A stretch of 64,000 nt of DNA from Chryseolinea soli (GTDB taxonomy: Bacteria > Bacteroidota > Bacteroidia > Cytophagales > Cyclobacteriaceae): NCBI RefSeq assembly GCF_003589925.1, contig NZ_CP032382.1, forward strand, positions 682,001 through 746,000, written 5' to 3'. Made by a program: the position numbers and the translations under genes. Positions 18,799 through 34,701 of this stretch are shown here, in pieces. The notes beneath the pieces were generated by a model. That model was not told the origin of the DNA, made no database searches, and worked only from the letters and a program-made list of their open reading frames with translations. Every line of letters starts with the position of its first letter. Position 1 is the first letter of the stretch.

Positions 18799-18822
18799 AA
18801 TGTCGTCTGTTTTTGTCGAAAG

Positions 18823-18836
18823 CCAGTTAAGTTAGG
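18823..18836 (-). repeat. Leader motif shared by permease genes (copy 1)
   Basis: CCAGTTAAGTTAGG on the plus strand differs by one base from the segment at 23664-23677. Both lie just upstream of the ATG of a permease gene (25 and 11 bases). They may be relics of the tandem duplication or a shared control element in the mRNA leader. Confidence 0.45.
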
Positions 18837-18847
18837 ATGGTCACTGT

Positions 18848-21208
18848 CTATTGTTCCTTCAGACACTTGACCGGATTGACCCGGGCCGCTTTGAAAGCCT
18901 GCACGCTCACCGTAAGCCAGGCGATGCACAAAGCGATGAGGCCTGCCGCCACAAAGTACCACCACTCCAAGGGCGTTTTGTAGGCAAAGCCTTCCAACCA
19001 ATAGTGCGATAAGAAATAGCTCAACGGCAAGGCCACGAGGATGGAGATCAGCACCGTTTTGGTGAAGTCACCCGACAACAGGAACACGATGCGAAACACA
19101 CTTGACCCCAAGACTTTCCGGATGCCAATTTCCTTCAAACGGCGCTCGGCCGTGAACGACACCAAACCAAAAAGCCCCAGGCATGAAATGAGCACCGCCA
19201 AACCGGCAAAATAGCGCGACAACACGGCCACGCGGCGTTCAGCGGCATAGAGTGCCTGTTGGTTCTCATCCAAAAAGCTGTATTCGAAAATAAACCCCGG
19301 ATTGACTTTGCGAAAGGTATCTTCAATGCGCTTTATGGTTTCGTGTTGCGGTCCCCGTGCCAGTTTGATCACGATGTGCCAGGTGTTGCCCGCATACATT
19401 CGCAAGAACAAGGGCTTCACCTTTTGATGCAACGACTCGAAATTAAAATCCTTTACCACGCCGATGATCTCCATATTATCGCCCCATAACTTCACCACCT
19501 TCCCAATCGGATCCTCCATGCCCATAAAGCGGATGGCGGCTTCGTTGAAAATGATTCGCGCCGTATCGGAAAAATCTTTGGAAAAAGCCCGGCCCTCTTT
19601 CAATTCTATGCCCATCGTTTCCATCAGGTCATGATTAACGCTCATGTTCTCGAACTCGGTTTTATCTTTCAAATCTTTTCCGGGCCACTCTACGCCGGAG
19701 GTGCCGCTGTTGTGCCCCATAAGATTGTGACCGAGGCTCGACGCGTTCACCACGCCGGGGATCGCTTTTATTTCCGACAGAAAAGTTTCCAGAGAGGCGT
19801 CGGTCCAAATATTTCCTTCGCGACGCACAAAAATCACGTTCTCTTTGTCATATCCAAGATCGCGCGATTGCACGAATTCGATTTGTTTATAGACCACCAC
19901 CACCGAAACAATAAAGATGATGGAGATTGTAAACTGAAAGATCACCAATCCTTTCCGCGCCCATTGCTCGCCCCATGAAGCGCTGAATTGACCTTTCAGT
20001 ACCGTGGCCGGGTTGAACCCCGAAAGGTATACCGCAGGATAACTCCCCGCCAGCAAACCCGTGATCGTCGTGATCGCCATCAACTGCAATCCCGTGACGG
20101 CATCGAGGTGAAGCGCAATGTGTTTACTCGTGATCTCATTGAATTTCGGCAACAACAGATCCGCGATGAGAATGGCCAGCACCAGGGAGAGCAAGCTCAT
20201 GAATAACGATTCGCCGAGGTATTGAATAACAAGTGTTTTGCGTCCAGCGCCAACGGCTTTTTTGATACCCACCTCCTTCATGCGTCGTGAAGCTTTGGCG
20301 GTAGACAAGTTCATAAAATTGATGGAGGCGATGACCAGGATAAAGGCTGCAATGATGGAAAACAGTTTTACGTAGGTGATCCTTCCACCCGTTTCAACGC
20401 CATTCTCATAGTTACCATGCAGGTAGTTTCTCGAAAAAAGTTTCAGGAATGGCGTGCGGTAGCGATCTTCATCTTTTGTTTTAATGCTGATATAGCTGGC
20501 AAACTTTGCATTGAAAGCCGCCACGTCCGCGCCCGGTTTGAGCAACACAAAAGCATAGGTTCCCGTGTTGCCCCAATCCAGAAGCCATTCCTTTCCGTCC
20601 TTGAACTTTTCGAAGGAGCCTAAAAAATCCATCTGCAAAGACGATTGCTGGGGCACTTTCTTAAACACACCCGAAATCACGTACGAATCGTGATGATCAT
20701 ATTCAACGGTCCGGCCCACCACATTATCGGTCGTGTTGAAAAGTTTTAGGGCCAACTCGTCACTGATCACCAGGGAACTCTTGTCGAGCAGGACCTGGTT
20801 GACGTCGCCTTGCAATAGGGAAAAGGAGAACATTTTAAAAAAATCTTTTCCGACGAAGCGACCTTCCGCCTTCATATTCTTATCGCCTATCGTGAGCGTG
20901 GCACCTTGACCCGAAGACGTGTTCATGGCATACTCCACCTCGGGCATTTCTCCTGACAGTGTTTCGCCTAAAAGACCCGACGTCGTGTAGGCTGTCCAGA
21001 TGCCACTAGGCCTCATGCGATTCTCGATCACCTGGTACAACCGATCCTTTTTCTCGTGAAATTGATCGAACGCCAATTCGTCGTTCACCCAAAAATAAAT
21101 GAGCAACGAGCACGCCAGGCCGGCAGTGAGTCCGGCGAGGTTGATAAAAAAGGTCGTTTTGAACCGAAGAAAATTGCGGAAGAGCAAAAGGAGATTATGC
21201 TTTATCAT
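18848..21208 (-). CDS. MacB/FtsX-type ABC transporter permease (second of three)
   Basis: A 786-residue paralogue of the neighbouring permeases, with the same order: a helix near the N-terminus (TTFFINLAGLTAGLACSLLI), a periplasmic domain, an FtsX core (RRMKEVGIKKAVGAGRKTLV), a second periplasmic domain and a final FtsX core (RRLKEIGIRKVLGSSVFRIV). The final residues VNPVKCLKEQ are near identical in all three. It lies 72 bases downstream of the first permease gene and 49 upstream of the third, so all three probably share the sigma-54 promoter at 23696. The substrate is unknown; FtsX/MacB relatives move lipoproteins, peptides or toxins, or transmit mechanical signals to cell-wall enzymes. Confidence 0.93.
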   Translation of the reverse strand: MIKHNLLLLFRNFLRFKTTFFINLAGLTAGLACSLLIYFWVNDELAFDQFHEKKDRLYQVIENRMRPSGIWTAYTTSGLLGETLSGEMPEVEYAMNTSSGQGATLTIGDKNMKAEGRFVGKDFFKMFSFSLLQGDVNQVLLDKSSLVISDELALKLFNTTDNVVGRTVEYDHHDSYVISGVFKKVPQQSSLQMDFLGSFEKFKDGKEWLLDWGNTGTYAFVLLKPGADVAAFNAKFASYISIKTKDEDRYRTPFLKLFSRNYLHGNYENGVETGGRITYVKLFSIIAAFILVIASINFMNLSTAKASRRMKEVGIKKAVGAGRKTLVIQYLGESLFMSLLSLVLAILIADLLLPKFNEITSKHIALHLDAVTGLQLMAITTITGLLAGSYPAVYLSGFNPATVLKGQFSASWGEQWARKGLVIFQFTISIIFIVSVVVVYKQIEFVQSRDLGYDKENVIFVRREGNIWTDASLETFLSEIKAIPGVVNASSLGHNLMGHNSGTSGVEWPGKDLKDKTEFENMSVNHDLMETMGIELKEGRAFSKDFSDTARIIFNEAAIRFMGMEDPIGKVVKLWGDNMEIIGVVKDFNFESLHQKVKPLFLRMYAGNTWHIVIKLARGPQHETIKRIEDTFRKVNPGFIFEYSFLDENQQALYAAERRVAVLSRYFAGLAVLISCLGLFGLVSFTAERRLKEIGIRKVLGSSVFRIVFLLSGDFTKTVLISILVALPLSYFLSHYWLEGFAYKTPLEWWYFVAAGLIALCIAWLTVSVQAFKAARVNPVKCLKEQ

Positions 21209-21280
21209 AGTGATTCGGTCTGATTAATTTTATTTAGCAATTATTTGATTCAGGGTGCTTATTGTACCCGGGATTAACGG

Positions 21281-23653
21281 TCATTGCTCCTTCAAACATT
21301 TCGATGGATTGATCCGGGCCGCCTTAAACGCCTGCGTGCTTACCGTCAGCCAGGCGATCATCAAAGACAGACCGCCCGCACCGACAAAGTACCAGACGGA
21401 CAGATCGATCTTGAACACAAACGTATCGAGCCAGTAGCGCACGATGAAATAGCTTACGGGCAAACCGATCGCGATCGACACCAACACGATGCGGGTGAAA
21501 TCTTTTGTCAACAGGTAGACAATGCCCGCTTCGCTGGAGCCCAACACCTTGCGAATACCCATCTCTTTCAAACGGCGCTCGGCGGTGAAAGCCGCCAGTC
21601 CAAACAGGCCCAGGCATGAAATGATGATGGCGAGCGCCGCGAAATAGCGCGACAAAATTGCTACGCGTTTTTCCGCCACGTATTGCGCCTGGTAGTCCTG
21701 GTCAAGGAATTTATAGTCGAAAGTGAAGCCGGGATTGAAGGTCGTGTAGAATCGACCGAGGCGCTCCAATGTTTCTTTTGTCTTGCCCCCTTCGATCTTC
21801 ACCATCACGTGCAGGGTTTCGTCGGGAACGTATCGAAAGAAAAGTGGCTTCACATTTTCGTGCAGTGATTGAAAGTGGAAATTCTTGACCACACCGATGA
21901 TCTGCATTTTTTTGCCCCACATCGTGATCTCTTTTCCCACGGGGTCTTTCAGGCCCATCACGTCGATGGCCGCTTCGTTGAAGATGATCTTCGATTGCTC
22001 GTCGCCAAAGCGGTTGGAGAACGTGCGCCCGGCAAGCATCTGCACACCCAAGGTCTCGATCATCTCGTAGTTGACGCCGACATTTTCAAAGGGTATGATG
22101 TCCGAGGGATTTTTTCCCTCCCACTCCATCCCGGTCGTGCTGTTTTCAGCTCGCACCATCGCATGAGCGCTGCTGGACGCATTGATCACTCCCGGCATCC
22201 GTCTCACCTCTGCCAGGAACGTTTCCAGGCTTTCGCCCACTTTTCCACTGGGCTTGAAGTAGACGATGTTGTCTTTGTCGAAGCCTATATTTTTGTTTTG
22301 AACGTACTCGATTTGTTTGTACACCACCATCACCGAAACAATGAAGACGATGGACAGCGCAAATTGAAACACCACCAGTCCCTTTCGCGCCCACATTTCG
22401 TTGGCCGAGTTGACGAACCGCCCCTTCAATACCAACGCGGGGTTGAATCCCGAAAGGTACAGGGCAGGATAACTGCCCGCGAGCAACCCGGTCGCTGTGG
22501 CAATCCCAACCAAAGCCAGCGCAAAGCGACCGGTAAAGTTCAGCGTCAACTGTTTGCCGGTGACGTCATTGAACAGCGGAAGTAAAAGATCTACCAGCAA
22601 CACGGCCACGGCCAACGACAAGAACGCCATCAACAGCGATTCCACGAGGTGCTGCGCAACCAACGTTCTCCTTCCCGCACCGATCGCTTTTTTGATGCCC
22701 ACTTCTTTGATGCGGGTCGTGGCTTTGGCCGTCGACAAGTTCATGAAGTTGATGCAGGCGATGATGAGAATGAAAATGGCAATCAGGGAGAACAACCGGA
22801 CGTATTCAATCCTACCGCCGGCTTGCACGCCGTTCTCGTAGTGCCCATGCAGATAGCGGTCGGAGTAGCGCTGCAAAAACAAGGTCACGTGCGACGAGGG
22901 ATCTTTTCGTTTTATAAAATCCGCGATCTTCGCGTCGACGTCGGCTGGACGCACACCCTCTTTCAATACGGCATAGGTGTTTGTTCCAAAATTTCCATAC
23001 GTCAACGCATCCTTCCCCACAATTTCCTTATATACTTCGAACGACAAAGCAAAGTCAAACCGGTCGGAAGCCGAGGCGGGAAGCTCTTTAAAGATACCCG
23101 TGATCACAAATTGTTTCTTGATGTTCAACACCTCCCACGACACCACCTTTCCCACGACATTGCGGGTGGTATTGAAAAATTTCTTTGCCAGGGTTTCCGA
23201 AATGACGATCGAACCTTTGTCGGTCAGCACGTTGGCAGGATCGCCCTGCAGGAAAGTATAGGAGAACACTTTGAAATAATCCTCACTGATCATCTGACCC
23301 ACGGCACTCACGTGCTTGTCTTCCACGGAAACCGAAAACTCGTAGGGCTCATTGAAACCAACCGAGGTGGCCACATTTTCAAATTCCGGAACCTCCGCGA
23401 TCAATGCCTCGCGAAGTATCGCCGGCGTGGAGGGAGACGTGTCGATGCCCTCGGTTAACTTTTTATAGGTCATCACCGAAAAGAGACGCGCATCGTTTTT
23501 GTGAAATGTATCGACAGACAGTTCATCGTTCACCCAAAGAAAGATCAACACCGCGCAAGTCAACCCGGTGGACAATCCGATCAGGTTAATGAGAAACGTA
23601 CTCTTGAAGCGTTTAAAATTCCGAAAGACGAGGAGTAAATAGTGTAGTATCAT
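21281..23653 (-). CDS. MacB/FtsX-type ABC transporter permease (first of three)
   Basis: A 790-residue permease starting at the ATG at 23653 (MILHYLLLVFRNFKRFKSTF). The frame is open for another 49 codons, but the paralogues begin at the equivalent residue. It has two FtsX cores (RIKEVGIKKAIGAGRRTLV and RRLKEMGIRKVLGSSEAGIV) and two periplasmic MacB_PCD domains. It is the promoter-proximal gene of a three-permease cluster, and a near-consensus -24/-12 sigma-54 site sits about 43 bases upstream. An NtrC-type activator gene is divergent, so its expression is very likely activator-dependent. No ATPase or membrane-fusion protein gene accompanies the cluster. Confidence 0.93.
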   Translation of the reverse strand: MILHYLLLVFRNFKRFKSTFLINLIGLSTGLTCAVLIFLWVNDELSVDTFHKNDARLFSVMTYKKLTEGIDTSPSTPAILREALIAEVPEFENVATSVGFNEPYEFSVSVEDKHVSAVGQMISEDYFKVFSYTFLQGDPANVLTDKGSIVISETLAKKFFNTTRNVVGKVVSWEVLNIKKQFVITGIFKELPASASDRFDFALSFEVYKEIVGKDALTYGNFGTNTYAVLKEGVRPADVDAKIADFIKRKDPSSHVTLFLQRYSDRYLHGHYENGVQAGGRIEYVRLFSLIAIFILIIACINFMNLSTAKATTRIKEVGIKKAIGAGRRTLVAQHLVESLLMAFLSLAVAVLLVDLLLPLFNDVTGKQLTLNFTGRFALALVGIATATGLLAGSYPALYLSGFNPALVLKGRFVNSANEMWARKGLVVFQFALSIVFIVSVMVVYKQIEYVQNKNIGFDKDNIVYFKPSGKVGESLETFLAEVRRMPGVINASSSAHAMVRAENSTTGMEWEGKNPSDIIPFENVGVNYEMIETLGVQMLAGRTFSNRFGDEQSKIIFNEAAIDVMGLKDPVGKEITMWGKKMQIIGVVKNFHFQSLHENVKPLFFRYVPDETLHVMVKIEGGKTKETLERLGRFYTTFNPGFTFDYKFLDQDYQAQYVAEKRVAILSRYFAALAIIISCLGLFGLAAFTAERRLKEMGIRKVLGSSEAGIVYLLTKDFTRIVLVSIAIGLPVSYFIVRYWLDTFVFKIDLSVWYFVGAGGLSLMIAWLTVSTQAFKAARINPSKCLKEQ

Positions 23654-23663
23654 GATGCTCGAT

Positions 23664-23677
23664 CCAGTTAAATTAGG
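23664..23677 (-). repeat. Leader motif shared by permease genes (copy 2)
   Basis: CCAGTTAAATTAGG on the plus strand matches the segment at 18823-18836 at 13 of 14 bases, again in the leader of a permease gene and downstream of the predicted sigma-54 transcription start. Confidence 0.45.
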
Positions 23678-23695
23678 TTGCTCGCTCCTTCCTAT

Positions 23696-23711
23696 GGCAG
23701 GGCTTGTGCCA
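23696..23711 (-). promoter_or_regulatory. Sigma-54 (-24/-12) promoter for the permease operon
   Basis: On the minus strand the site reads TGGCACAAGCCCTGCC. The GG of the -24 element and the GC of the -12 element are exactly ten bases apart, and the TGGCAC half is a full consensus match. The predicted start of transcription is near 23685, about 30 bases before the permease ATG. The adjacent divergent gene encodes the sigma-54 activator, which strengthens the call. Confidence 0.8.
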
Positions 23712-23876
23712 CAATGCGAAAGCCCATTTCCAGGCTGGAAAGCCATTTTTTTGACGTTCCCCATCCAAAACTGCCCATCCGTAGAAAAGTCACTGTCCAA
23801 TATTGGGCACTTTTTATGGTTTTTCGATGGCCGATGGATAGCTTTAAATTCTCTTTTATAAATGTAGCGTCAGAAA

Positions 23877-25250
23877 ATGAGTAAACCCCTGGGCCGTATT
23901 TTGTTGGTAGACGATGATGAGTTTGTGCTGCTTTCGGTGAAAATGTTGCTGGAGCCGCACTTCGCCGTGGTGAAGACCGTGAACAACCCCGAGCGCATCC
24001 CCGCATTAATTGACCACGAGGGATTTGATGTCGTGGTGCTCGACATGAATTTCAGAAGCGGCGACACAACCGGCAACCAGGGACGTTTCTGGCTCAAGAA
24101 AATCCTCAGCCGGCACCCCGACACGCAAGTGATCCTCCTTACCGCCTATGGCGATATTCAGCTTGCCGTGGATTCTATCAAGGAAGGCGCGCTGGATTTT
24201 ATTGTCAAACCTTGGCAAAATGAAAAACTGCTCACCACCGTGAAAACCGCCAACCTCGTGAGCCAGGAAAAAAATAAAGTAAAACAGCTGCGCTCACAGC
24301 AACGCTCGCTGGTGTCGGCGCTACGTCAAAAGAACGAGCCACTGGTGGGCACATCTTCCGGCATCATGGCCATTCGCAAGACGATCGAGAAAGTGGCACC
24401 CACCGAGGCGGAAGTGCTCATCCTAGGCCAGAACGGCACGGGGAAAGAAGTGATCGCCCGCGAGATCCATGAGAAGTCTCAGCGCGCCGAAGGCATCTTC
24501 ATGACGGTGGATGTGGGGGCCTTGAGTGAAAATCTCTTTGAAAGCGAAATGTTCGGTCATCGCAAGGGTGCATTCACCGACGCCAAAGAAGATCGCGTCG
24601 GCCGGTTCGAAGCGGCGGCCGGGGGCACGTTGTTGCTGGACGAGATCGGGAACCTTCCCTTGTCGCTTCAGGCCAAACTGCTCACGGTGCTGCAAAGCAA
24701 AAAAGTGACCCGCCTGGGAACGCACGATCCCATCGACCTGGACGTTCGCATCATTTGTGCCACCAATTGCAACCTGCATGCGATGGTAGAGGCGGGAAAA
24801 TTCAGGGAGGATCTTTTGTACCGCATCAACACCGTAGAGCTCACCGTCCCAACCCTGCACGACCGGCCTGAAGATATTCCCCTGCTGGCGCAACACTTCC
24901 TGAAAAAATTCGCATCAAAATATCAAAAGCCTTATCTTAAAATTTCAGCAGAGGCCCTGTCACAACTGGGTGGCTACCGGTGGCCCGGAAACATTCGCGA
25001 ACTTCAACATGCCGTGGAGCGGGCCGTCATCATGTGTGAAGGCGAAGCATTGATGCCCGACGATTTCGGATCGGTGCAGCAAACCCCGTCGGGTGAATTC
25101 AGGTTCGACCACCTCAACCTCGAGCAACTGGAAGCGTGGGCCATTCGCAAGGTCATTGCCAAACACCAGGGAAACATCAGTCACGCCGCAGAAGAACTAG
25201 GGCTTTCACGCGGGGCGCTTTACCGGAGAATGGAAACGTATGGTATTTAA
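23877..25250 (+). CDS. Sigma-54-dependent response regulator (NtrC/ZraR type)
   Basis: A 457-residue transcription activator with three domains. The receiver domain (residues 1-120) has the acidic pocket VDDDE and phospho-acceptor Asp56 (VVVLDMNF), with Lys111. The AAA+ domain (about 155-390) has Walker A GQNGTGKE, Walker B TLLLDE and the sigma-54 contact loop, written GAFTDA instead of the usual GAFTGA. The C-terminal Fis-type helix-turn-helix (ISHAAEELGLSRGALYRRM) binds enhancer DNA. Its histidine kinase gene overlaps it by 11 bases, and the divergent permease operon has a sigma-54 promoter, so phosphorylation should switch on those permeases. Confidence 0.95.
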   Translation: MSKPLGRILLVDDDEFVLLSVKMLLEPHFAVVKTVNNPERIPALIDHEGFDVVVLDMNFRSGDTTGNQGRFWLKKILSRHPDTQVILLTAYGDIQLAVDSIKEGALDFIVKPWQNEKLLTTVKTANLVSQEKNKVKQLRSQQRSLVSALRQKNEPLVGTSSGIMAIRKTIEKVAPTEAEVLILGQNGTGKEVIAREIHEKSQRAEGIFMTVDVGALSENLFESEMFGHRKGAFTDAKEDRVGRFEAAAGGTLLLDEIGNLPLSLQAKLLTVLQSKKVTRLGTHDPIDLDVRIICATNCNLHAMVEAGKFREDLLYRINTVELTVPTLHDRPEDIPLLAQHFLKKFASKYQKPYLKISAEALSQLGGYRWPGNIRELQHAVERAVIMCEGEALMPDDFGSVQQTPSGEFRFDHLNLEQLEAWAIRKVIAKHQGNISHAAEELGLSRGALYRRMETYGI

Positions 25251-26595
25251 AAATTTCCGCATCAACGTTATTTTCAGAGTGCTCTTGCTGGTGGTGAGCA
25301 TCGGGTTGCTGGCGTGGTGCGTGGTGCATGAGCGATACCTCCGCAGCGTTTACCTAGCCGCCGCTGTCTGCATCGTGGTGGGGGAATTCATTTGGTATGT
25401 CGACCGTTTCAACCGCGATATGAAGGTGTTTATGGTGAGCCTGATGCAGAAGGATTTCACAACGCATTTTCAATCAACAGGAAGAGGCAAACGTTTGGAT
25501 GAGCTTTACACTATATTGAACGCTATCTCCGAAGCCTTTAAAAAGATCAGCACGGAAAAAGAAACGCAGTATCGCTATTTGGAAATGCTGGTGGAACACG
25601 TCCGCGTGAGCATTCTCAGCATCGACGAAGAGGGGAAGATCCACCTGGCGAACCCGTCGTTAAAAAATATGCTTCAGAAAAGCATTCTTCCCAACCTGAA
25701 AGCACTGGAAGTATTCGGCGAACATTTTGTCAAGACTTTGCGGGAGATACGCTCGGGGGAAACGCGGTTGGAAAAACTCCGTGTACAAAACGACGTATTG
25801 CAGTTGTCTATCCATGCCTCCGAGTTCAAACTGCAGGGCCGCTACTATAAACTGATCTCCATGCAAGACATCCGCAGCGAACTCGATGCGCGCGAAGTGG
25901 AAGCGTGGCAGAAACTGATCCGGGTGCTGGGTCACGAGATCATGAACTCCGTGTCGCCCATCACGTCCCTGAGCGCCACCCTCCACGGTATGGTTACCGC
26001 AAACCAACCTGCGTTTGGCGACGATCACACATCGCTTTATGGCTCCCTCGACAAAGGATTGGAGGCCATCAAAATACGAAGCGAAGGCCTTTACAATTTC
26101 ACACAGACGTATCGAAAACTGACCGGTATCCCCAAACACGCGCCTCGAAAAACGAATCTGAAAGACATCGTTGAACGCGTACACCTGTTGCTACAAACCA
26201 AGCTTCAGGAACATAACATTGTCCTGCAAACCTCTGCCGTTGACTTAACCATTTTCGCAGACCCGGAAATGATGGAGCATGTGCTGATCAACCTTATTCT
26301 TAATGCGGTTGACGCTTTGGCGTCCACACCCGGTCCACGCATTGAAATCAACACGTCACGCCACCCGAACGGGAGCACCATCATTCACATTCTCGACAAC
26401 GGCGAGGGTATGGATGAACTCACCCTGGAAAAGATCTTTATTCCTTTTTACACCACGCGCAAGCATGGCTCCGGCATCGGGCTGGCCATCACCAAACAAA
26501 TCCTTCAACTGCATCAAGCCGACATCCGTGTGACCAGCGAGCCTGGAAAAGGAACCGAATTCATGATCGCGTTGAACGCAACACCTGCCACCTAG
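25240..26595 (+). CDS. Membrane histidine kinase (NtrY-like), partner of the NtrC-type regulator
   Basis: A 451-residue sensor kinase with two membrane helices near the N-terminus (about 10-28 and 37-55), a short cytoplasmic linker, a PAS-like segment (YLEMLVEHVRVSILSIDEEG), a dimerisation domain with phospho-accepting His232 in RVLGHEIMNSVSP, and an ATPase domain with N-box NLILNAVDAL, DNGEGM and a GSGIGLAITKQ glycine box. The almost absent periplasmic loop suggests that it senses within the membrane or in the cytoplasm, for example via the PAS domain. The ATG lies inside the regulator gene, so the pair is translationally coupled. Its stop is two bases from the stop of a converging gene. Confidence 0.93.
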   Translation: MVFKNFRINVIFRVLLLVVSIGLLAWCVVHERYLRSVYLAAAVCIVVGEFIWYVDRFNRDMKVFMVSLMQKDFTTHFQSTGRGKRLDELYTILNAISEAFKKISTEKETQYRYLEMLVEHVRVSILSIDEEGKIHLANPSLKNMLQKSILPNLKALEVFGEHFVKTLREIRSGETRLEKLRVQNDVLQLSIHASEFKLQGRYYKLISMQDIRSELDAREVEAWQKLIRVLGHEIMNSVSPITSLSATLHGMVTANQPAFGDDHTSLYGSLDKGLEAIKIRSEGLYNFTQTYRKLTGIPKHAPRKTNLKDIVERVHLLLQTKLQEHNIVLQTSAVDLTIFADPEMMEHVLINLILNAVDALASTPGPRIEINTSRHPNGSTIIHILDNGEGMDELTLEKIFIPFYTTRKHGSGIGLAITKQILQLHQADIRVTSEPGKGTEFMIALNATPAT

Positions 26596-26597
26596 AG

Positions 26598-27044
26598 TCA
26601 GACCACTCGCTCCCAGGTTACGGTGAACACCGTTTCGCCGGTTTGGGTTGGTACAGGTGGCGTGCTCACCTGCAGGACGTTGCCGGTGAGCACGGCATAG
26701 CGCAGTTGCTCCATACCCATCCAATTCGGAAATAAACTCCCCTCTACAAAGTGAATGATCTCTCCGGGAGCGCGTTCATAGTACTTTCCAAAATAGGCGA
26801 GGTAACTGTGAAAGGCATGTTTCGATTCTTCCGCCGTGCCACTGTTGATGGAGTCGGAGGCAAAAGGCACACGGCCCGCTTTCATCAATTGGGCGTTCAT
26901 GTTCCCCGCTGTGTCGTACATCAAAATGCCGGTGGCATCTTTCCCGAAATAATCGATCAATTCATTTTTTTCATTCACATAGGTCCAGGAAACCAATTTC
27001 CATGTGCCCACGACTTTATCTTTTACGGAGGCTTTCATAGGCAT
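26598..27044 (-). CDS. Lipocalin-like domain protein coupled to the PKS gene
   Basis: A 148-residue protein of the lipocalin-like family that begins with the typical VGTWKLVSWTYVNEKNEL and has the GILMYDTAGNMNAQLM strand. The family forms a small beta-barrel that holds a hydrophobic ligand; some members sit in polyketide clusters, where they may bind or cyclise the product. Start and stop codons of the two genes overlap as TGATG, so it is translated directly after the polyketide synthase. This tight coupling is the main reason to suspect a part in the same pathway. No signal peptide is present, so it acts in the cytoplasm. Confidence 0.82.
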   Translation of the reverse strand: MPMKASVKDKVVGTWKLVSWTYVNEKNELIDYFGKDATGILMYDTAGNMNAQLMKAGRVPFASDSINSGTAEESKHAFHSYLAYFGKYYERAPGEIIHFVEGSLFPNWMGMEQLRYAVLTGNVLQVSTPPVPTQTGETVFTVTWERVV

Positions 27045-30000
27045 CAAGAAGGTTGGTTAACGGACAATACCGCCTCCTCATCGCCAATGGCATCCAGGAT
27101 CGTCGCCGTCACAAACGCCGCTTCATGTTCAATGTAACGGTGTCCGCCGGGACGGGAAACCAGTTGGAAAGATTTTGTGGTCTCGTTCTGCCACTGTTCC
27201 ACCTGCTGACGGGTGACGCGTGCATCTTCTTTGCCATGGAATCCAACAATAGAAACCGGGATCGGTTCTTCCGCCGTGTATTGATAGTTGTTCAACAACT
27301 CCAGGTCGGCACGCAATATGCGCATGAGGATCTGTTGAAGTTCGGCGTCCTTGCTGTTCTCGATCGACACATGGGGGAACATGGCCGTCAGGTCTTCGTC
27401 GGAAAGTTGATGGTCAACTTGCCCTTTGTCATAAGAGAACAGGCTTGGGGTGGACGACACGAATAGCTTGTCCGGCAAGGCCTTGTTCATGCGCCGCAGG
27501 GAACGGATCACTTCGAACGCGATGAGACCTCCCATACTGTGACCAAAGAATGAGAATGGTTTATCCATTTTGTCGAGCAATATGGGCATCATGTCTTTCA
27601 ACAGGTCTTCCAGTTTGCGATACGGCTGTTCGGCCCAACGTGTGCCACGACCCGGAAGCTCCACCAACACAACCTCCACGCCATCGCCCAGGCGATTTTC
27701 CCAATCATGATAGAGGGAAGCATTTCCGCCGGCGTCGTGAAAACAGAAGAGTCGGCGTATGGCCTTGTCGTTTACTTTTGTGGTCACAAACCAACGGTTG
27801 TCCACGGTAGCTTCGGCGGCGGCGTCCTGTTTTTCCAGGGCAATGATAAGTCTTTGTTCTGCCGTTTGCGGGCGAAGATTATCAAAGAGATAGACCGCAT
27901 ATTCGCGAATGCTGGGATGCGACCAGAACATCGCCACGGAAAGCTTCAGGTCGACACTTTTCTCTAATAGATTCCGCAGCTGAATGGCCATGAGCGAATC
28001 CACACCCAAACCCTTAAAGGTCATGGAAGCGTTGATGCGTGCAACCGGCATTTTGATGATCTTGCTGACATGGCGGGTGATGAGTTGTTCCAACGCCTCT
28101 TTGCGTTCACGGGCGTCTGTCAGGCCGGCAAAGGTATCCAGGAAGCTGACCTCTTTTTCATCCGCGGTCGTTTTGTCGATCGTCAACAAGCCTTTGAAAT
28201 AATGCGTACGGGACATGGCCGAATAATAAGAGCCCATTTGCGTCGCGTCAATTTTCATGATGCCGATCTGCGTGAAGTCTTGCATGGCGATGGTATCGTA
28301 TACGTCCATCGCCTCTTTCATCACGATGGGTTCGAAGCCTTCGGCACGTGCATATTTTTCCAACTCGCTTTCATTGGCAACCATGCCCACGTCTTTGATC
28401 ACGCCCCAGTTGATGCTTTGCGCCGTGAGTCCTTTTTGTTTACGGCGATGGGCCAGCACATCCAGGAAACTGTTGGCCGCCACGTAGCTGGCTTGTCCGC
28501 TGAGCCCGATTAGCGAAGAGGCTGATGAGAACAGGACGAAACAATCCAGGGTGAGGTGTTGGGTGAGCAGGTGGAGATTCCAGGCTCCTTTCAATTTCGG
28601 CGCCAGCGTTTCCATGAATTCAATCTCCGAGATCTTGTCGATGGACTTTGCTTCGATCACACCGGCGGCGTGGATCACCCCTTTCAAGGGTGGCATAGAG
28701 CTTTGAATTTTTTCCAACACGTTTTGCAATTGGTCTGCATGGCTCGCATCGGCCTGGAAGGTCGTGAAGCGACATCCTTGCGACTCATACGCCAGGATCT
28801 TTGTCAGGACACTATCGGGGGCTTTACCCGTGCGGCTCAGGAGTGCGAAGTTGCGGGCACCACGACGGATCATCCATTCGATGAAAACAAATCCCAGGCC
28901 TCTGAAACCGGTCACCAGGTAGGTGGCCTGATCCGAATAGCGGGCTTGCAACGCCTTGGCTGCTGTTTCCGTATTGGACAATGCTTTCAACCGGGGTGTG
29001 AATTGCATCCGGCCGCGCAACGTGATCTCGCGATCGGCGACGTCGGATTCCTGGATCATTTGAACAACCTGATCCAACTCTTCCATCATGGGATTGAAGC
29101 TAAGGTCGTAGCGCTTGGCTTCATACTGGGGTAACTCATTGCTCACCACGCGCAGCAGTCCCGACAACGCTGCATGAACTACCTGGGGCTGATGTTTGTC
29201 AGATCCGACGACTTGCATACCGTTGGTGACTACTGCCAGCTTCGGCGCCTTTGATGTTTGACGCGCCATCACTTCCTGGAGGGCATACAACACGCTGATG
29301 CTGCCATATACTTGTTCCCCTTCCATTTCATTGGACGTCAGCTCCCGCTCGCTGGAGGGGTAGTAGAGTCCGCCCATGTGCAACACGCCATCCAAAACCG
29401 GCACATGGTGCGCCAGGTCTTTGGCCAGTCGTGCATAACCGTCCTTGTCTGCATAGTCGAGTTTGTATTGCAGCAGGCCGGAACCATCCTCCACTCTGCC
29501 AAATTCCCGATCGGGTGTGACGTGGATAAACCGGATGCCGGCGGCTTCCATTTTCTCCAGGAGGATGCCACTCAGTCCATAAACATCGCCGAACAACAGC
29601 CACGTTTGCAGTTCTGATTTGACGTTGTTCTTTTCTGCCACAGCACGCTCGTTCCACTCGACATCATACAACCAACTCTTGATCTTTTCACTTTCGCGAC
29701 GGATGAGGTCGGCGTCAAGGATCTTGCCTTGCAATCCCGAAACTTTCAACACCACGTTGTCGTGGGCGCCGAAAATGATGAGGTCGGCTTTCACGGTGAT
29801 CGTTCCCCGTTCGCTGTCGGTGCGCGCCGGGTAGAGCCGGGCTTCACCGCGAACCGGTTGCGAATAGTCTATTTTTCCAAGCAACTGCACTTCGTCCACC
29901 GATGTGAGGAAGGTGGTTCGATCGGACGATGCGTCGGGTTGCTGCGCGATGGTGAGGAACAGCGGTTGGAAGCAAGCGTCGAGCAAAGCCGGGTGCAGTG

Positions 30001-33000
30001 CATAGCGGTTTGCGTTCTGACGAATGCTTTCTTCGGGCTGCACTTCAAAGGACACATACGTATTGGCACCACGGCGCTCCATCGACAAGGTTTGGAGTCC
30101 CTGAAAATGTTTTCCATACTGCAATCCAAGACCTTGCAACGATTGGTAATATTCCTTTGTATCGACAGAAGAAACCGCCGCCGATGTCGTGTTGATAAAC
30201 CGATCGGTATGCGTGAGTGAACCGGTGTACATGGTCAGCACGCCTTCCGCCAACAATGTCCATCCTGACTTATCTTCTGCATTGCCGCGGGCGAAGAATT
30301 TAAAATCATTGCGACCGTTCTCGTTTTCCACCATGCGCAACTGCACGCGCTTGAGTTCACCCTCCGCCAGGTTGATAGATTGAATGAAGTTGAGCTTCCG
30401 GATGATCGGCACACCTGCCCCATGAATTTCCAGGGCTGCCTCCAGGATGATCTCCACGTAGCCGGCACCAGGAAATACAGGCGTTGCATTTACCTGGTGA
30501 TCGGCGAGATAGGGATATTTACCGAGCCCGATCTGCGATTCCCAGTAGCGCACTTCATCCAGGCCGGCGAGTGTGAGGGATTGTCCCAGCAAAGGGAAAC
30601 GCAGGCCGGTGCTTTTATCGCGTTGTTCGGCCGAGCGGTCTTCCAGCGCATAGGTCTCCCGTTGAAACGGATAAGCCGGAAGGGAAACGATGGGTGCCTT
30701 GGCGATACCGTAAAAATCTTTCCAGCACACATCGAACCCTTTGGCATAAAGATCTCCCAGGTTTTTGAGGAGTGATTCCTGTTCCGGCTTCTCGCGGAAA
30801 AGCGAGGGCACGGTGATGACTTTCATTTTCCCAGCTTCCGCACATTCGTTGACCGCATTGGTCAGCACGGGGTGCGGGCTCACTTCAATGAACACGACGT
30901 GCTGGCGGTCCATCAGTTGTTGCATGATGGTCGAGAACTGAACGGTGTTCCGGAGATTGCTCACCCAATATTCAGCATTCATCTCCCTGCCCTCCATTTG
31001 TCGTGCCTGTACCGTAGAGTACAATGCGATCTCGCCCTCGCGCGGCGTGATGCCTTGCAGGGCAAGACGAAGGTCTTCCTTCAAAGGATCCATCTGCTGG
31101 CTATGAGAGGCTACATCCACCTTAACCAACCGGCCGAAGAGACCTTTGCTTTCCAATTCTTGCAGGAGTTGATCGATCGCCTGTTTGTCTCCTGCGACTA
31201 CCGTAGACTTCGGACTGTTGGATACGGCTACCGAAAGGCCGGGGTAGCGCTTGATCATTTCTGCAGCAGCGTTTTGATCCAGTTCAGTTACGGCCATGGC
31301 ACCGCCTTGGCCGCTGACGCGCTTCATTAATTTGCTGCGTGTGCAAATGATGTTGGCTGCATCTTCCAGGCTGATGGTTCCTGCAATGTGCGCGGCCGCC
31401 ACCTCCCCCATACTGTGACCAACCACAGCCTGCGGGCGAACGCCCCAAGCCATCCACAATTTGGCCAGCGCAATTTGAATCGCACAGATGGCCGGTTGAA
31501 TGACGTTGATCTCGTTCCACCGACCGGTGTTGTCCGTTGATTGAAGTTGCTCCAGCAACGACCAGTCTGTATACGGACGATAGGCCTTGTCGCAGGCTTC
31601 GATGGCCTTGCGGAAAACCGTTTCCTTTTGCATCAGTTCTCTGCCCATGCCAAGCCATTGTGATCCCTGACCTGGAAATACAAAAACAACTTTCTCGCGC
31701 GCCGACAACGGTGCTGCCGGGGTCAATTCTTGTTCATCTTTCAGAAAATCTTCAAGGCTGTTCAACACCGCTTCTTTGTTGGTGCCCGTGTGCAGAACGC
31801 GGAAGTCGAAGCCCGGTTTCAGCAAAGCCGTAGCCACCGAAAGATTCGCGAATGCTTCTTCGTTACCCGCCTTGATGCGGTCGGCATATTCCTTTGCATA
31901 GGATTTCAATGCTTTTTGCGAGCGGGCCGACAACGGCAGCGCATAGCGGTTTGTGACACTGTGCGTGGGTGCCGACTGCACCACGATCGGCCTGTATTCT
32001 TCAATGACGGTATGCGCGTTGGTACCACCCCAACCAAAGGAGTTGATACCGGCTCTTAACTTTTCGCCGTGGCCGGTCGGCCATTGGCCCAGTTCATTTT
32101 GCACTTGAATTTTTAATTCTTCAAAAGCGATGGCTGGGTTGGGATTCTTAAAGTTGAGACTTGGGGGGAGCATTTTATGCCGGATCGCGAGCACTACCTT
32201 GATCAGGCCTGCCATGCCGGCCGCGGCTTCCAGGTGGCCGATGTTTGTTTTCACAGAGCCCACGCGAAGTTTGGTGGTGCGACCCTGGCCAAAAAATTCT
32301 CCCAGCGCGCGCGTCTCCGTGGGATCACCCAATTTGGTTCCTGTGCCGTGGGCTTCTACGTAATGCACGTCTTTGGGTGCAATGCCCGAGCCTGCATAGG
32401 CTTCGCGCAATACTTGCTTTTGGCCTTCCGTGCTGGTCGCGGGGAGGTTGACGTTGTAGCCGTTGTTGTTCATGGCCGAACCTTTGACAACGGCATAGAT
32501 CGTGTCGCCATCGCGCTCGGCATCCGAGAGTCGTTTTAGAAAGAGTACGCCCGCGCCTTCGCCGCGCACGAAGCCATCGGCGGCCTCGTCGAAGGTGCTG
32601 CACTTTCCTTTTTTGGAGAGGCCTCCGAACTTGGCGAGCAGAACGTTTTGGTCGGGGTCGAGGATGTGGTTGATGCCCGCAGCAAACGACATCTCCGTGC
32701 TGCCGTCCCACAGACTTTGACACGCCAGGTGAAGCGCTACCAGCGACGAAGAGCAACCGGTATCCATCACCAGGCTGGGTCCCGTGAAGCCGAACGCGAA
32801 CGATACGCGGTTAGCAATAATATTGGAGGATTGTCCCACCGCCGAGTGTGACGTGACGGGGGCATTCTTGTGTTTGCGCAAATGTTCGAAGTCGTTCCAG
32901 ATGTTGCCGACATACACGCCCACCTTCTTTCCTTGCACGGACTGCATGGGAATGGTCGAGTTCTCGACAGCCTCCCAAACCAACTCCAGCATCAGCTTTT

Positions 33001-33307
33001 GGGAAGGGTTCATCTCGGCAGCTTCCGCGGGCGAGATGTTGAAGAAGAGCGGATCGAAGTCGTGGATATTCTCCAGCATGGAGGCGTGACGTTGGTGTGA
33101 CTTGCCCTGTGCGAGCGGGTCGGAGTCGTAATAGTCATCGTTGTTCCAGCGCGACTTTGGTATTTCTGTAATGGTATCCCTACCTTCACTGAGCAGTTTC
33201 CAAAAAGCTTGCAAGGTTTCGGCTTGGGGAAAACGGCACGACATGCCGACGATGGCGATGGGTTCTTTCATAACTGGGGATTGTGGGTTGTTGTGAGGTG
33301 TCTTCAT
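27044..33307 (-). CDS. Single-module type I polyketide synthase (KS-AT-DH-KR-ACP-TE)
   Basis: A 2087-residue megasynthase. The ketosynthase (about 14-440) has Cys185 (DTGCSSS), His320 (EAHGTGT) and His358 (KTNIGHLE). The acyltransferase (540-850) has Ser632 in GHSMGE and a VASHS specificity loop, as in methylmalonyl- or mycocerosic-type domains. The dehydratase (905-1200) has His937 and Asp1110. The ketoreductase (1215-1690) has Lys1573, Ser1594/1595 and Tyr1608, but a cofactor loop one residue short (TGFRGLG). The carrier domain has Ser1771 (GVDSL), and a thioesterase (1850-2075) has Ser1924 (GHSMGG). There is no enoylreductase. The start at 33307 precedes the first family motif by 12 residues. 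The product is unknown; one module with its own TE suggests iterative use. Confidence 0.95.
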   Translation of the reverse strand: MKTPHNNPQSPVMKEPIAIVGMSCRFPQAETLQAFWKLLSEGRDTITEIPKSRWNNDDYYDSDPLAQGKSHQRHASMLENIHDFDPLFFNISPAEAAEMNPSQKLMLELVWEAVENSTIPMQSVQGKKVGVYVGNIWNDFEHLRKHKNAPVTSHSAVGQSSNIIANRVSFAFGFTGPSLVMDTGCSSSLVALHLACQSLWDGSTEMSFAAGINHILDPDQNVLLAKFGGLSKKGKCSTFDEAADGFVRGEGAGVLFLKRLSDAERDGDTIYAVVKGSAMNNNGYNVNLPATSTEGQKQVLREAYAGSGIAPKDVHYVEAHGTGTKLGDPTETRALGEFFGQGRTTKLRVGSVKTNIGHLEAAAGMAGLIKVVLAIRHKMLPPSLNFKNPNPAIAFEELKIQVQNELGQWPTGHGEKLRAGINSFGWGGTNAHTVIEEYRPIVVQSAPTHSVTNRYALPLSARSQKALKSYAKEYADRIKAGNEEAFANLSVATALLKPGFDFRVLHTGTNKEAVLNSLEDFLKDEQELTPAAPLSAREKVVFVFPGQGSQWLGMGRELMQKETVFRKAIEACDKAYRPYTDWSLLEQLQSTDNTGRWNEINVIQPAICAIQIALAKLWMAWGVRPQAVVGHSMGEVAAAHIAGTISLEDAANIICTRSKLMKRVSGQGGAMAVTELDQNAAAEMIKRYPGLSVAVSNSPKSTVVAGDKQAIDQLLQELESKGLFGRLVKVDVASHSQQMDPLKEDLRLALQGITPREGEIALYSTVQARQMEGREMNAEYWVSNLRNTVQFSTIMQQLMDRQHVVFIEVSPHPVLTNAVNECAEAGKMKVITVPSLFREKPEQESLLKNLGDLYAKGFDVCWKDFYGIAKAPIVSLPAYPFQRETYALEDRSAEQRDKSTGLRFPLLGQSLTLAGLDEVRYWESQIGLGKYPYLADHQVNATPVFPGAGYVEIILEAALEIHGAGVPIIRKLNFIQSINLAEGELKRVQLRMVENENGRNDFKFFARGNAEDKSGWTLLAEGVLTMYTGSLTHTDRFINTTSAAVSSVDTKEYYQSLQGLGLQYGKHFQGLQTLSMERRGANTYVSFEVQPEESIRQNANRYALHPALLDACFQPLFLTIAQQPDASSDRTTFLTSVDEVQLLGKIDYSQPVRGEARLYPARTDSERGTITVKADLIIFGAHDNVVLKVSGLQGKILDADLIRRESEKIKSWLYDVEWNERAVAEKNNVKSELQTWLLFGDVYGLSGILLEKMEAAGIRFIHVTPDREFGRVEDGSGLLQYKLDYADKDGYARLAKDLAHHVPVLDGVLHMGGLYYPSSERELTSNEMEGEQVYGSISVLYALQEVMARQTSKAPKLAVVTNGMQVVGSDKHQPQVVHAALSGLLRVVSNELPQYEAKRYDLSFNPMMEELDQVVQMIQESDVADREITLRGRMQFTPRLKALSNTETAAKALQARYSDQATYLVTGFRGLGFVFIEWMIRRGARNFALLSRTGKAPDSVLTKILAYESQGCRFTTFQADASHADQLQNVLEKIQSSMPPLKGVIHAAGVIEAKSIDKISEIEFMETLAPKLKGAWNLHLLTQHLTLDCFVLFSSASSLIGLSGQASYVAANSFLDVLAHRRKQKGLTAQSINWGVIKDVGMVANESELEKYARAEGFEPIVMKEAMDVYDTIAMQDFTQIGIMKIDATQMGSYYSAMSRTHYFKGLLTIDKTTADEKEVSFLDTFAGLTDARERKEALEQLITRHVSKIIKMPVARINASMTFKGLGVDSLMAIQLRNLLEKSVDLKLSVAMFWSHPSIREYAVYLFDNLRPQTAEQRLIIALEKQDAAAEATVDNRWFVTTKVNDKAIRRLFCFHDAGGNASLYHDWENRLGDGVEVVLVELPGRGTRWAEQPYRKLEDLLKDMMPILLDKMDKPFSFFGHSMGGLIAFEVIRSLRRMNKALPDKLFVSSTPSLFSYDKGQVDHQLSDEDLTAMFPHVSIENSKDAELQQILMRILRADLELLNNYQYTAEEPIPVSIVGFHGKEDARVTRQQVEQWQNETTKSFQLVSRPGGHRYIEHEAAFVTATILDAIGDEEAVLSVNQPS

Positions 33308-33509
33308 AAAAAATATTGCTATCGTGAAATAATAATCGAATGTAGTATGAAGTATTCCTGCATACTTTTGAACAACCGTTGAAACATTACCCAAAAACCT
33401 TTTTCGAAAATTGCGCGCGATCTAAGTAGTTTTTCGGATGTACTCCCCGGAATCAGGGGTATATCAATGACCATCCCAAACCATTGCATAACCCAACGCA
33501 CCATTCTCT

Positions 33510-34148
33510 ATGATCACCGGCGCACGCTATGACAAAAGAGGCTTTTCAGAAACACCAGGCCTTCAAACGCTTAAAAAGAAAATCGCGCCCGCGTTGTTGC
33601 CTGCTACGAAATACGTATTTGAAAGTGAGTTACTTAACAGTCTGATCGGAAGATGGCTGCTGCAGCGTCTACTGGAAAAAAAAGAAGTTTCCCTCGAAAA
33701 GTTACACCTTACTCCCGATGATCATGGCAAGCCCCGTCTCTCCTTGCCGTTGGATTTTTCTATCGCGCATTCGTTCGACGTGGTGATTTGTCTGGTTTCG
33801 GATGAGGGCCCTGTGGGCGTTGATGTTGAAAAGATACGCGATGTGCCGTTGGAGGAATATCAATCCAGCTTCACGGAGCATGAGTGGTCCTTCATTATGA
33901 AAGATCACAACAAGATCGAATCTTTCTTTTCCTTGTGGACAAAGAAAGAAAGCCTGCTCAAGATGCATGGTCTCGGGCTACAGGTTCCCCTGACACAGGT
34001 GACGGTGTTGGATACGGTAGGTGTTATCACAGCTAATGCTTCCATTCATACAGGCGTGTGGCATCGCCACGCTATCCCAGGATACAGCTGTCATGTTGCC
34101 GTTCCCGAAAATGCCTCATCGTTTGAAATCGATGTGGTGGTGTTTTGA
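33510..34148 (+). CDS. 4'-phosphopantetheinyl transferase, Sfp type
   Basis: A 212-residue enzyme that moves the phosphopantetheine arm from coenzyme A to the serine of carrier domains. The family signatures are present: VGVDVEKIRD, which supplies the magnesium-binding Asp and Glu residues, and FFSLWTKKESLLKMHGLGL. Sfp-type members activate PKS and NRPS carriers. It is divergent from the polyketide synthase with about 200 bases between the starts, so it almost certainly primes Ser1771 of that protein. The N-terminal half (HLTPDDHGKPRLS) fits the family. Confidence 0.9.
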   Translation: MITGARYDKRGFSETPGLQTLKKKIAPALLPATKYVFESELLNSLIGRWLLQRLLEKKEVSLEKLHLTPDDHGKPRLSLPLDFSIAHSFDVVICLVSDEGPVGVDVEKIRDVPLEEYQSSFTEHEWSFIMKDHNKIESFFSLWTKKESLLKMHGLGLQVPLTQVTVLDTVGVITANASIHTGVWHRHAIPGYSCHVAVPENASSFEIDVVVF

Positions 34149-34314: not shown

Positions 34315-34701
34315 ATGCAGTCATTATCCAAACAAAAGAATCTTGAAATCAGTTACGATCCAGAGCACAAGTATCTCTACTGTAACTGGCTTGGATTCCA
34401 GAACAAGGAGTCGATCATGAAATCCGGTTTCATCATCCTGGACTTGCTCAAGCAAAAGAAAGTAAGCAAGGTATTGAATGACAACTCGCAAGTGACCGGG
34501 CCTTGGCAAGAAGCGGCCGAATGGACGGCTACGGTGTGGTTCCCGCAAATGATCGAGAACGGTCTCAAACATTTTGCGTGGATCTTTTCTCCGAACATCT
34601 TCTCTGAACTATCGGCAAAGAAGGCCATGCCTTCCTCCGGTATTGTAAAATCTTTTAATTCTTATAATGACGCGTTGAGCTGGCTGGTGTTGCAGAAGTA
34701 A
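34315..34701 (+). CDS. Hypothetical cytoplasmic protein, possibly STAS/SpoIIAA-like
   Basis: A 128-residue tryptophan-rich protein starting MQSLSKQKNLEISYDPEHKY and continuing LYCNWLGFQNKESIMKSGFI. The alternation of strands and helices and the length resemble SpoIIAA-like/STAS proteins found in Bacteroidota, but I see no diagnostic motif. There is no signal peptide. A TATCTTCA box lies about 60 bases before the ATG, and a short ACGCAAAA/TTTTGCGT stem follows the gene. Nothing nearby indicates its role. It is transcribed in the same direction as the phosphopantetheinyl transferase, but 166 bases away. Confidence 0.65.
   Translation: MQSLSKQKNLEISYDPEHKYLYCNWLGFQNKESIMKSGFIILDLLKQKKVSKVLNDNSQVTGPWQEAAEWTATVWFPQMIENGLKHFAWIFSPNIFSELSAKKAMPSSGIVKSFNSYNDALSWLVLQK

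What the first reader, a model, noticed from the sequence alone, without database searches (positions are those of the whole stretch)
26598..34148. Compact polyketide locus: one-module PKS, coupled lipocalin-like protein, divergent phosphopantetheinyl transferase
A KS-AT-DH-KR-ACP-TE protein with all main catalytic residues is followed, with TGATG overlap, by a small lipocalin-like protein, and is divergent from an Sfp-type enzyme. The thioesterase gives release, the transferase gives activation, and the absence of an enoylreductase predicts double bonds or hydroxyls. Small lipocalin-like partners in PKS loci are uncommon in my experience. I cannot name a characterised locus with this composition. 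Iterative use and a polyene or pyrone product are inference.
Basis: partly seen in the sequence, partly recalled or inferred. Interest (0 to 1): 0.7.

Follow-up and report, generated by a model that had tools for sequence, protein, structure and literature searches.

The report
Polyketide synthase with constant lipocalin partner
A soil bacterium carries a one-gene polyketide factory that, in its relatives, comes together with a small barrel-shaped protein, once fused into the same chain, which points to an undescribed partner that handles or shapes the product.

Summary
In detail: a KS-AT-DH-KR-ACP-TE polyketide synthase (PKS), a Lipocalin_5 gene overlapping its stop (TGATG), and a divergent Sfp-type transferase. 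It is not a one-off. Of 295 genomes sampled from the family, 35 hold a PKS match of 985 bits or more; 31 of these have a strong lipocalin directly after it, one is cut by a contig end, and three lack both thioesterase and lipocalin and fall outside the clade. In Chitinophaga polysaccharea the lipocalin is the last domain of the PKS. PKS and lipocalin distances correlate at r = 0.73. A STAS-fold gene (34315-34701) travels along in 27 of 31 loci. KR and DH motifs are lost in several lineages, the lipocalin is kept. The 21 genomes with only lower-scoring PKSs have no lipocalin beside them; both of these synthases scanned by Pfam carry an enoylreductase. So the lipocalin most likely handles an unreduced or partly reduced, probably alpha-alkylated chain around release. 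Whether it catalyses or only carries is open; the product is unknown. My ten paper searches found no link of this lipocalin family to PKSs.

The parts
27044..33394 (-). Type I polyketide synthase, KS-AT-DH-KR-ACP-TE, 2116 aa from TTG (2087 aa from the likely ATG at 33307)
31994..33265 (-). KS domain, TGCSSSL, EAHGTGT, NIGH (residues 44-467)
30737..31687 (-). AT domain, GHSMGEV and VASH (not the malonyl-type HAFH)
29714..30595 (-). DH domain, HQVNATPVFP and LHPALLDACFQ (His and Asp present)
28394..28927 (-). KR domain; Ser, Tyr and Asn present; cofactor loop one residue short
27896..28084 (-). ACP domain, LGVDSLMA
27125..27757 (-). Thioesterase domain, type II-like, FGHSMGG and PGGHRYI
26598..27044 (-). 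Lipocalin_5 protein; its start codon overlaps the PKS stop (TGATG)
   Evidence: model pLDDT 91.7
33510..34148 (+). Sfp-type 4'-phosphopantetheinyl transferase
34315..34701 (+). STAS-fold (SpoIIAA-like) protein, fourth gene of the cassette

Best explanation
This is the Chryseolinea member of a conserved cassette of Bacteroidota: a single-module, TE-ended and probably iterative PKS, a Lipocalin_5 partner, usually a STAS-fold protein, and often its own PPTase. The PPTase activates the ACP. The PKS builds a chain with an alkyl-malonyl extender (AT motif VASH), reducing it partly (KR, DH, no ER) or, in other lineages, not at all. The lipocalin takes the reactive beta-keto or enone chain at the ACP/TE end or just after release and steers its folding, most likely ring closure or isomerisation, to a small cyclic or branched lipid-like product. 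Shown here: gene order, co-inheritance, correlated divergence, fusion, folds, motif retention and loss. Inferred: iteration, extender, the step at which the lipocalin acts, catalysis as against carriage, and the product.
For: Two separate scans of the same 295 genomes agree: all 31 lipocalins at E <= 6.3e-44 lie beside this PKS; the next lipocalin is at 2.4e-28 and is not beside it. One fused KS-AT-ACP-TE-Lipocalin_5 protein. KS-LIP distance correlation 0.73 and TE-LIP 0.78, against 0.85 for KS-TE within one protein; 0 of 2000 permutations reach each. The lipocalin persists through loss of KR/DH motifs or domains; the KS-AT tree needs at least 4 such changes, one of them for the long row L065. 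None of the 21 genomes with only lower-scoring PKSs has a lipocalin beside the PKS; 7 of these loci were read and lack it, and Pfam finds an ER in 2 of 2 scanned. Outside the clade, lipocalin and PKS are neighbours in two Planctomycetota contigs (L066, L068), two contigs titled only 'bacterium' (L072, L075), a Cytophagales contig (L065) and a cyanobacterial plasmid (L138); five of these six PKSs (not L065) hold a methyltransferase domain (Pfam in L066, L068, L072, L138; in-house model in L075). Clade ATs read VASH in 33 of 33 rows, reported for epothilone AT7 and as an ethylmalonyl motif (passages of PMC8058987 and PMC6090053); the genome has PF01642 (methylmalonyl-CoA mutase family) matches.
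Against: No product or enzyme assay exists. The structure searches list binders and enzymes alike (prostaglandin D synthase at Foldseek rank 1 with E 2.1e-3, nothing at E <= 0.001; retinol-binding protein, nitrophorins, a designed retro-aldolase), so the fold does not decide between carriage and catalysis. In L066, L068, L072 and L075 the lipocalin and PKS are convergent, 6 to 919 bases apart, not one operon. VASH/IASH also occurs in 4 of 4 outgroup PKSs without a lipocalin. TE-bearing PKSs without a lipocalin exist in the family. Relatedness inflates the correlation. The lipocalin query was built from PKS-linked members. Twelve of 32 lipocalin loci have no PKS nearby.
Confidence: 0.5

Rival explanations
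1. The lipocalin is a non-catalytic carrier: it binds the hydrophobic product or intermediate in its barrel, keeps it soluble or moves it on, without changing its structure.
For: Lipocalin folds are classic hydrophobic-ligand binders (recalled); the best VIA matches are Bacteroides lipocalin-like proteins without a named activity. My domain models show only PKS, lipocalin, STAS and PPTase as recurring genes (other genes were not modelled), so no exporter was seen and a carrier role would fill a gap.
Against: The fusion right after the TE and the TE-LIP correlation suggest action at the assembly line. For fungal Fsa2/CghA a binding role was also guessed first, and gene deletion changed the stereochemistry (passages of PMC9055775).
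Confidence: 0.3
2. The lipocalin is a pericyclase: it directs a Diels-Alder or similar reaction of a polyene made by the PKS, as fungal lipocalin-type Diels-Alderases do.
For: Lipocalin-type decalin-forming enzymes are known from fungal PKS-NRPS clusters; 24 clade PKSs keep KR and DH motifs and Pfam finds no ER in the clade PKSs scanned, so dienes are possible.
Against: The lipocalin stays in 7 rows whose KR is absent or lacks its Tyr and whose DH lacks its Asp, and in L048, L054 and L065 without both domains, where the PKS alone should not make a polyene.
Confidence: 0.1
3. The neighbourhood is inherited by descent alone; the lipocalin has an unrelated housekeeping role.
For: The clade is largely one lineage and near copies inflate counts.
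Against: A fusion, flanks that differ from the window's in G018 and G023, a scattered presence in Chitinophaga, and lipocalin-PKS neighbours in other phyla need repeated co-retention.
Confidence: 0.1

Closest known systems
Single-chain PKSs such as mycocerosic acid synthase (MAS)
   Same: Residues 44-1444 of the PKS align with MAS 9d2y; AT neighbours in PDB include DEBS and MAS
   Different: No ER, an added type II-like TE, a short KR loop, a lipocalin partner; the NCBIfam Pks2 and PKS_plus_SDR models score under their cut-offs (972.6 against 2400, 1270.4 against 1740)
Fungal lipocalin-type Diels-Alderases (CghA, Fsa2, Phm7)
   Same: Lipocalin-type protein encoded in a PKS cluster (passages of PMC9055775)
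   Different: No sequence match to them in PDB at E <= 1; here the partner is a bacterial PKS that often lacks KR/DH motifs, and the protein is one short domain
Type II thioesterases RedJ, RifR, TesA
   Same: TE domain matches 3qmw at 5.8e-32, RifR at 2.4e-24 and TesA at 2.5e-17 (the name RedJ for 3qmw is recalled)
   Different: Here it is fused C-terminally to the PKS
PBP-type thioesterases (SurE, PenA, Ulm16)
   Same: A release enzyme with a lipocalin-like domain (passages of PMC11735501)
   Different: There the catalytic part is a penicillin-binding-protein-type domain in NRPS pathways; a loose analogy
STAS domain of YchM bound to ACP (3ny7)

Membership tests
Type I PKS, single module with TE | KS, AT and ACP domains with active residues in one chain | tested here: met
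   Pfam above cut-off; TGCSSSL, GHSMG, LGVDSLMA
Type I PKS, single module with TE | Usual glycine-rich cofactor loop in KR (where a KR is present) | tested here: not met
   TGFRGLG, one residue shorter than in 12 of 12 comparison KRs; bears on KR activity, not on being a PKS
Iterative PKS | One module used for several elongations | not testable with these tools
   Circumstantial only: one long PKS ORF among the genome's 11 KS matches
Lipocalin_5 (PF13924) | Full-length match above gathering score | tested here: met
   113.2 bits against 25, positions 1-142 of 142
Fungal lipocalin-type Diels-Alderases | Homology to CghA/Fsa2 | tested here: inconclusive
   Three chains at E <= 1, none of them these; the fold lists do not name them, which excludes nothing
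Fungal lipocalin-type Diels-Alderases | Catalyses a [4+2] cycloaddition | not testable with these tools
   No assay
Sfp-type PPTase | ACPS-superfamily domain and Sfp-like motifs | tested here: met
   PF01648 47.9 bits against 25; GVDVEK and LWTKKES align with Sfp
STAS domain | STAS fold | tested here: met

The most novel reading that the evidence does not exclude
Lipocalin_5 is an unrecognised class of PKS chain-processing domain in bacteria: a barrel that acts on alpha-alkyl-beta-keto (or enone) chains at the TE stage, in trans or as a terminal PKS domain (KS-AT-ACP-TE-LIP), recruited more than once (Bacteroidota, Planctomycetota, Cyanobacteria).
Probability: 0.32. Interest if true: 0.75.

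Novelty: new variant of a known kind. Interest (0 to 1): 0.6.

Why it matters
A tiny locus (one synthase, one barrel, one activator) is an unusually simple system for asking what a lipocalin does to a polyketide. Nature supplies matched variants with intact, degraded and missing reductive domains and one fusion, so the role of the barrel can be tested with two or three genes. If the barrel is catalytic, a Pfam family named only 'Lipocalin-like domain' becomes a genome-mining handle for PKS products.

Tried and rejected
Rejected: polyene Diels-Alderase as the general role (the lipocalin outlives KR and DH). Rejected: chance neighbourhood. Considered and rejected: the lipocalin goes with any TE. 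Eight control loci with TE-ended PKSs hold none: seven from the 21 genomes above and one (L189, G053) from another family, whose contig ends 47 bases after the PKS but whose genome has no lipocalin match at 0.001. Considered and rejected: VASH predicts the pairing; outgroups have it too.

Limits. The EGSLFPNW conservation in A4 is partly an artefact, because the scan used that stretch as a pattern. Twelve of its 32 loci are the same contigs as in the family survey (equal lengths), so the counts are not independent. Of the 32, 20 have a PKS nearby and 12 do not; L061 and L062 are contigs under 5 kb. Of 48 lipocalin rows in 295 genomes 31 are strong and 17 weak; the weak ones are elsewhere. In the class sample 6 of 395 genomes matched at 1e-10; apart from the window's, none was followed up. 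Of 93 plasmid records with a lipocalin match I read the neighbours of 3; one (L138) has a PKS. One search took 54 PKS ORFs, 42 distinct, and left out the broken PKS of L044 and the contig-cut ones of L052 and L075. The lipocalin tree has 58 distinct rows of 70; the class-level lipocalins L077-L081 were left out by the script; L034, L037, L038 and L039 are very long rows; the PKS-linked clade's own branch has support 26, while the 35-row set with L065 is starred. Both trees are 'quick' searches, and L138, L065 and L083 are long in the KS-AT tree. My notebook entries 1 and 2 call L072 (and entry 1 also L075) Planctomycetota; their record titles say only 'bacterium'.

Papers. Searches: in a library of open-licence papers, so 'no link found' means in these ten. 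I saw listings, and passages of PMC4859500, PMC11735501, PMC9055775, PMC8058987, PMC6090053 and PMC7242659. Meanings of KR, DH, AT and TE motifs, what MAS and type II thioesterases do, and general lipocalin function are recalled unless a call is named.

Full report
What is there. The window lies at 682001-746000 of a one-contig 8.24 Mb genome. Its same-genus genomes G002 and G001 have contigs equal in length to records titled Chryseolinea serpens and C. lacunae. On the minus strand a 2116-residue ORF (27044-33394) carries KS, AT, DH, KR, ACP and thioesterase domains and no ER. The likely start is the ATG at 33307, where the C. lacunae ORF also begins. Its stop overlaps the start of a Lipocalin_5 gene by one base. 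A Sfp-type PPTase is divergent.

Domains in detail. KS, ACP and TE active-site motifs are intact. The AT reads GHSMGEV and VASH; it aligns with DEBS ATs, which have YASH there, and with MAS. Papers list VASH for epothilone AT7 and as an ethylmalonyl motif (passages), so an alkyl-malonyl extender is likely but not proven; the genome has PF01642 matches, the methylmalonyl-CoA mutase family. The KR keeps Ser, Tyr and Asn, but in every clade row printed its cofactor loop is one residue shorter than in 4 outgroup and 8 control PKSs. The TE is closest to type II thioesterases (3qmw, RifR). Of 11 KS matches in the genome only this one lies in a long PKS ORF; the other ten sit in ORFs of 343-426 residues.

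A conserved pair. I searched the same 295 genomes of the family with the PKS and, separately, with the lipocalin profile. Fifty-six genomes have a PKS match at 1e-200. In 35 of them the best match reaches 985 bits. Thirty-one of those 35 have a strong lipocalin (E <= 6.3e-44) on the same strand directly after the PKS. G008's contig ends inside its PKS, which is also broken by stops. G591, G696 and G668 have PKSs without TE and without lipocalin, and they fall outside the clade. No strong lipocalin lies elsewhere. The other 21 genomes have only lower-scoring PKSs; one of them (G544) has a lipocalin match at 1e-6 or better, at another place on the contig. I read seven of those 21 loci and one from another family of the order (G053): all eight have KS-AT-DH-KR-ACP-TE order with about 600-675 residues between DH and KR and no lipocalin; L190's TE is split over two ORFs, and L189 ends 47 bases after the PKS. 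Pfam was run on two of the eight and finds an ER in both.

Fusion and co-evolution. In Chitinophaga polysaccharea one ORF of 1412 residues reads KS-AT-ACP-TE-Lipocalin_5 with about 20 residues between the last two domain matches. In a sample of 244 genomes of that genome's family, 5 match at 1e-15 and only the fused one strongly (2.1e-60; the next is 4.3e-18); C. vietnamensis, which has an unfused pair, was not among the matches of that sample. Over 33 clade members, KS and lipocalin distances correlate at 0.73, TE and lipocalin at 0.78, KS and TE (same protein) at 0.85; no permutation of 2000 reaches any of them. Shared ancestry contributes to all three values.

Reduction is optional. Of 42 distinct PKSs aligned, 24 clade members have KR active-site motifs, and all 24 keep the DH His and Asp. 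Five lack KR and two have a KR without its Tyr and loop; in all 7 the DH Asp is replaced, and in 6 of 7 the His too (L056 keeps it). Two Chitinophaga PKSs and L065 lack both domains. On the KS-AT tree these losses need at least 4 changes, one of them for L065, a long branch outside the 33-row clade. The correlated fate of KR and DH argues that the unusual KR still works where it is kept. The lipocalin stays through all of it, so its substrate feature should not depend on reduction.

Other lineages. Of 32 loci found by scanning named genomes with the lipocalin profile, 20 have a PKS nearby and 12 do not. Fifteen of the 20 belong to the clade; L065 is a Cytophagales contig with KS-AT-ACP-TE. The other four are L066 and L068 (Planctomycetota) and L072 and L075 (titled only 'bacterium'); there the PKS has a methyltransferase domain, L066 also an AMP-ligase loading part, and lipocalin and PKS are convergent, 6 to 919 bases apart. 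A Brasilonema plasmid has KS-AT-MT-ACP-TE followed 22 bases later on the same strand by a Lipocalin_5 gene, inside a PKS/NRPS cluster. These five lipocalins sit apart from the Bacteroidota clade. An alpha-methyl group could thus come from the AT in one group and from the methyltransferase in the other; that is an inference from motifs and domains. Yersinia, an SAR202 contig and an Aerococcus plasmid have a lipocalin of this family beside an SDR gene and not beside a PKS.

Conclusion. The cassette is real, conserved and, in the ten paper searches I made, undescribed. Functional coupling of lipocalin and PKS is well supported (I would put it near 0.85). Catalysis by the lipocalin, the extender unit and the product are open.

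Noticed in passing
34315-34701: STAS-fold gene travels with the PKS-lipocalin pair although the window protein has no Pfam match; possible ACP-docking or regulatory partner.
   Followed up: partly
L184-L191: Family of about 2400-residue TE-ended PKSs (ER found in the two scanned), 7 of 8 with a PPTase model match in the stretch read and none with a lipocalin; a second compact PKS cassette of these bacteria.
   Followed up: partly
L138 2561-12444: Brasilonema plasmid cluster with an NRPS carrying a nitroreductase-family domain, then KS-AT-MT-ACP-TE, then Lipocalin_5, with a free thioesterase after it.
   Followed up: partly
16390-23800: Three large minus-strand ORFs in a row; the two whose sequence I saw look alike and resemble MacB/FtsX-type permeases by eye; relatives of the block lie beside the cassette in C. 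serpens and C. lacunae.
   Followed up: no
23877-26595: Response regulator with a sigma-54-type ATPase and a sensor kinase (named by eye), convergent with the lipocalin gene and kept beside it in 2 of 5 loci compared, the two Chryseolinea ones.
   Followed up: no
L066 8665-9714, L075 6950-9270: Lipocalin-PKS loci outside Bacteroidota also carry a KAS III-like gene (L066, L075) and, in L075, a zinc dehydrogenase beside the lipocalin.
   Followed up: partly
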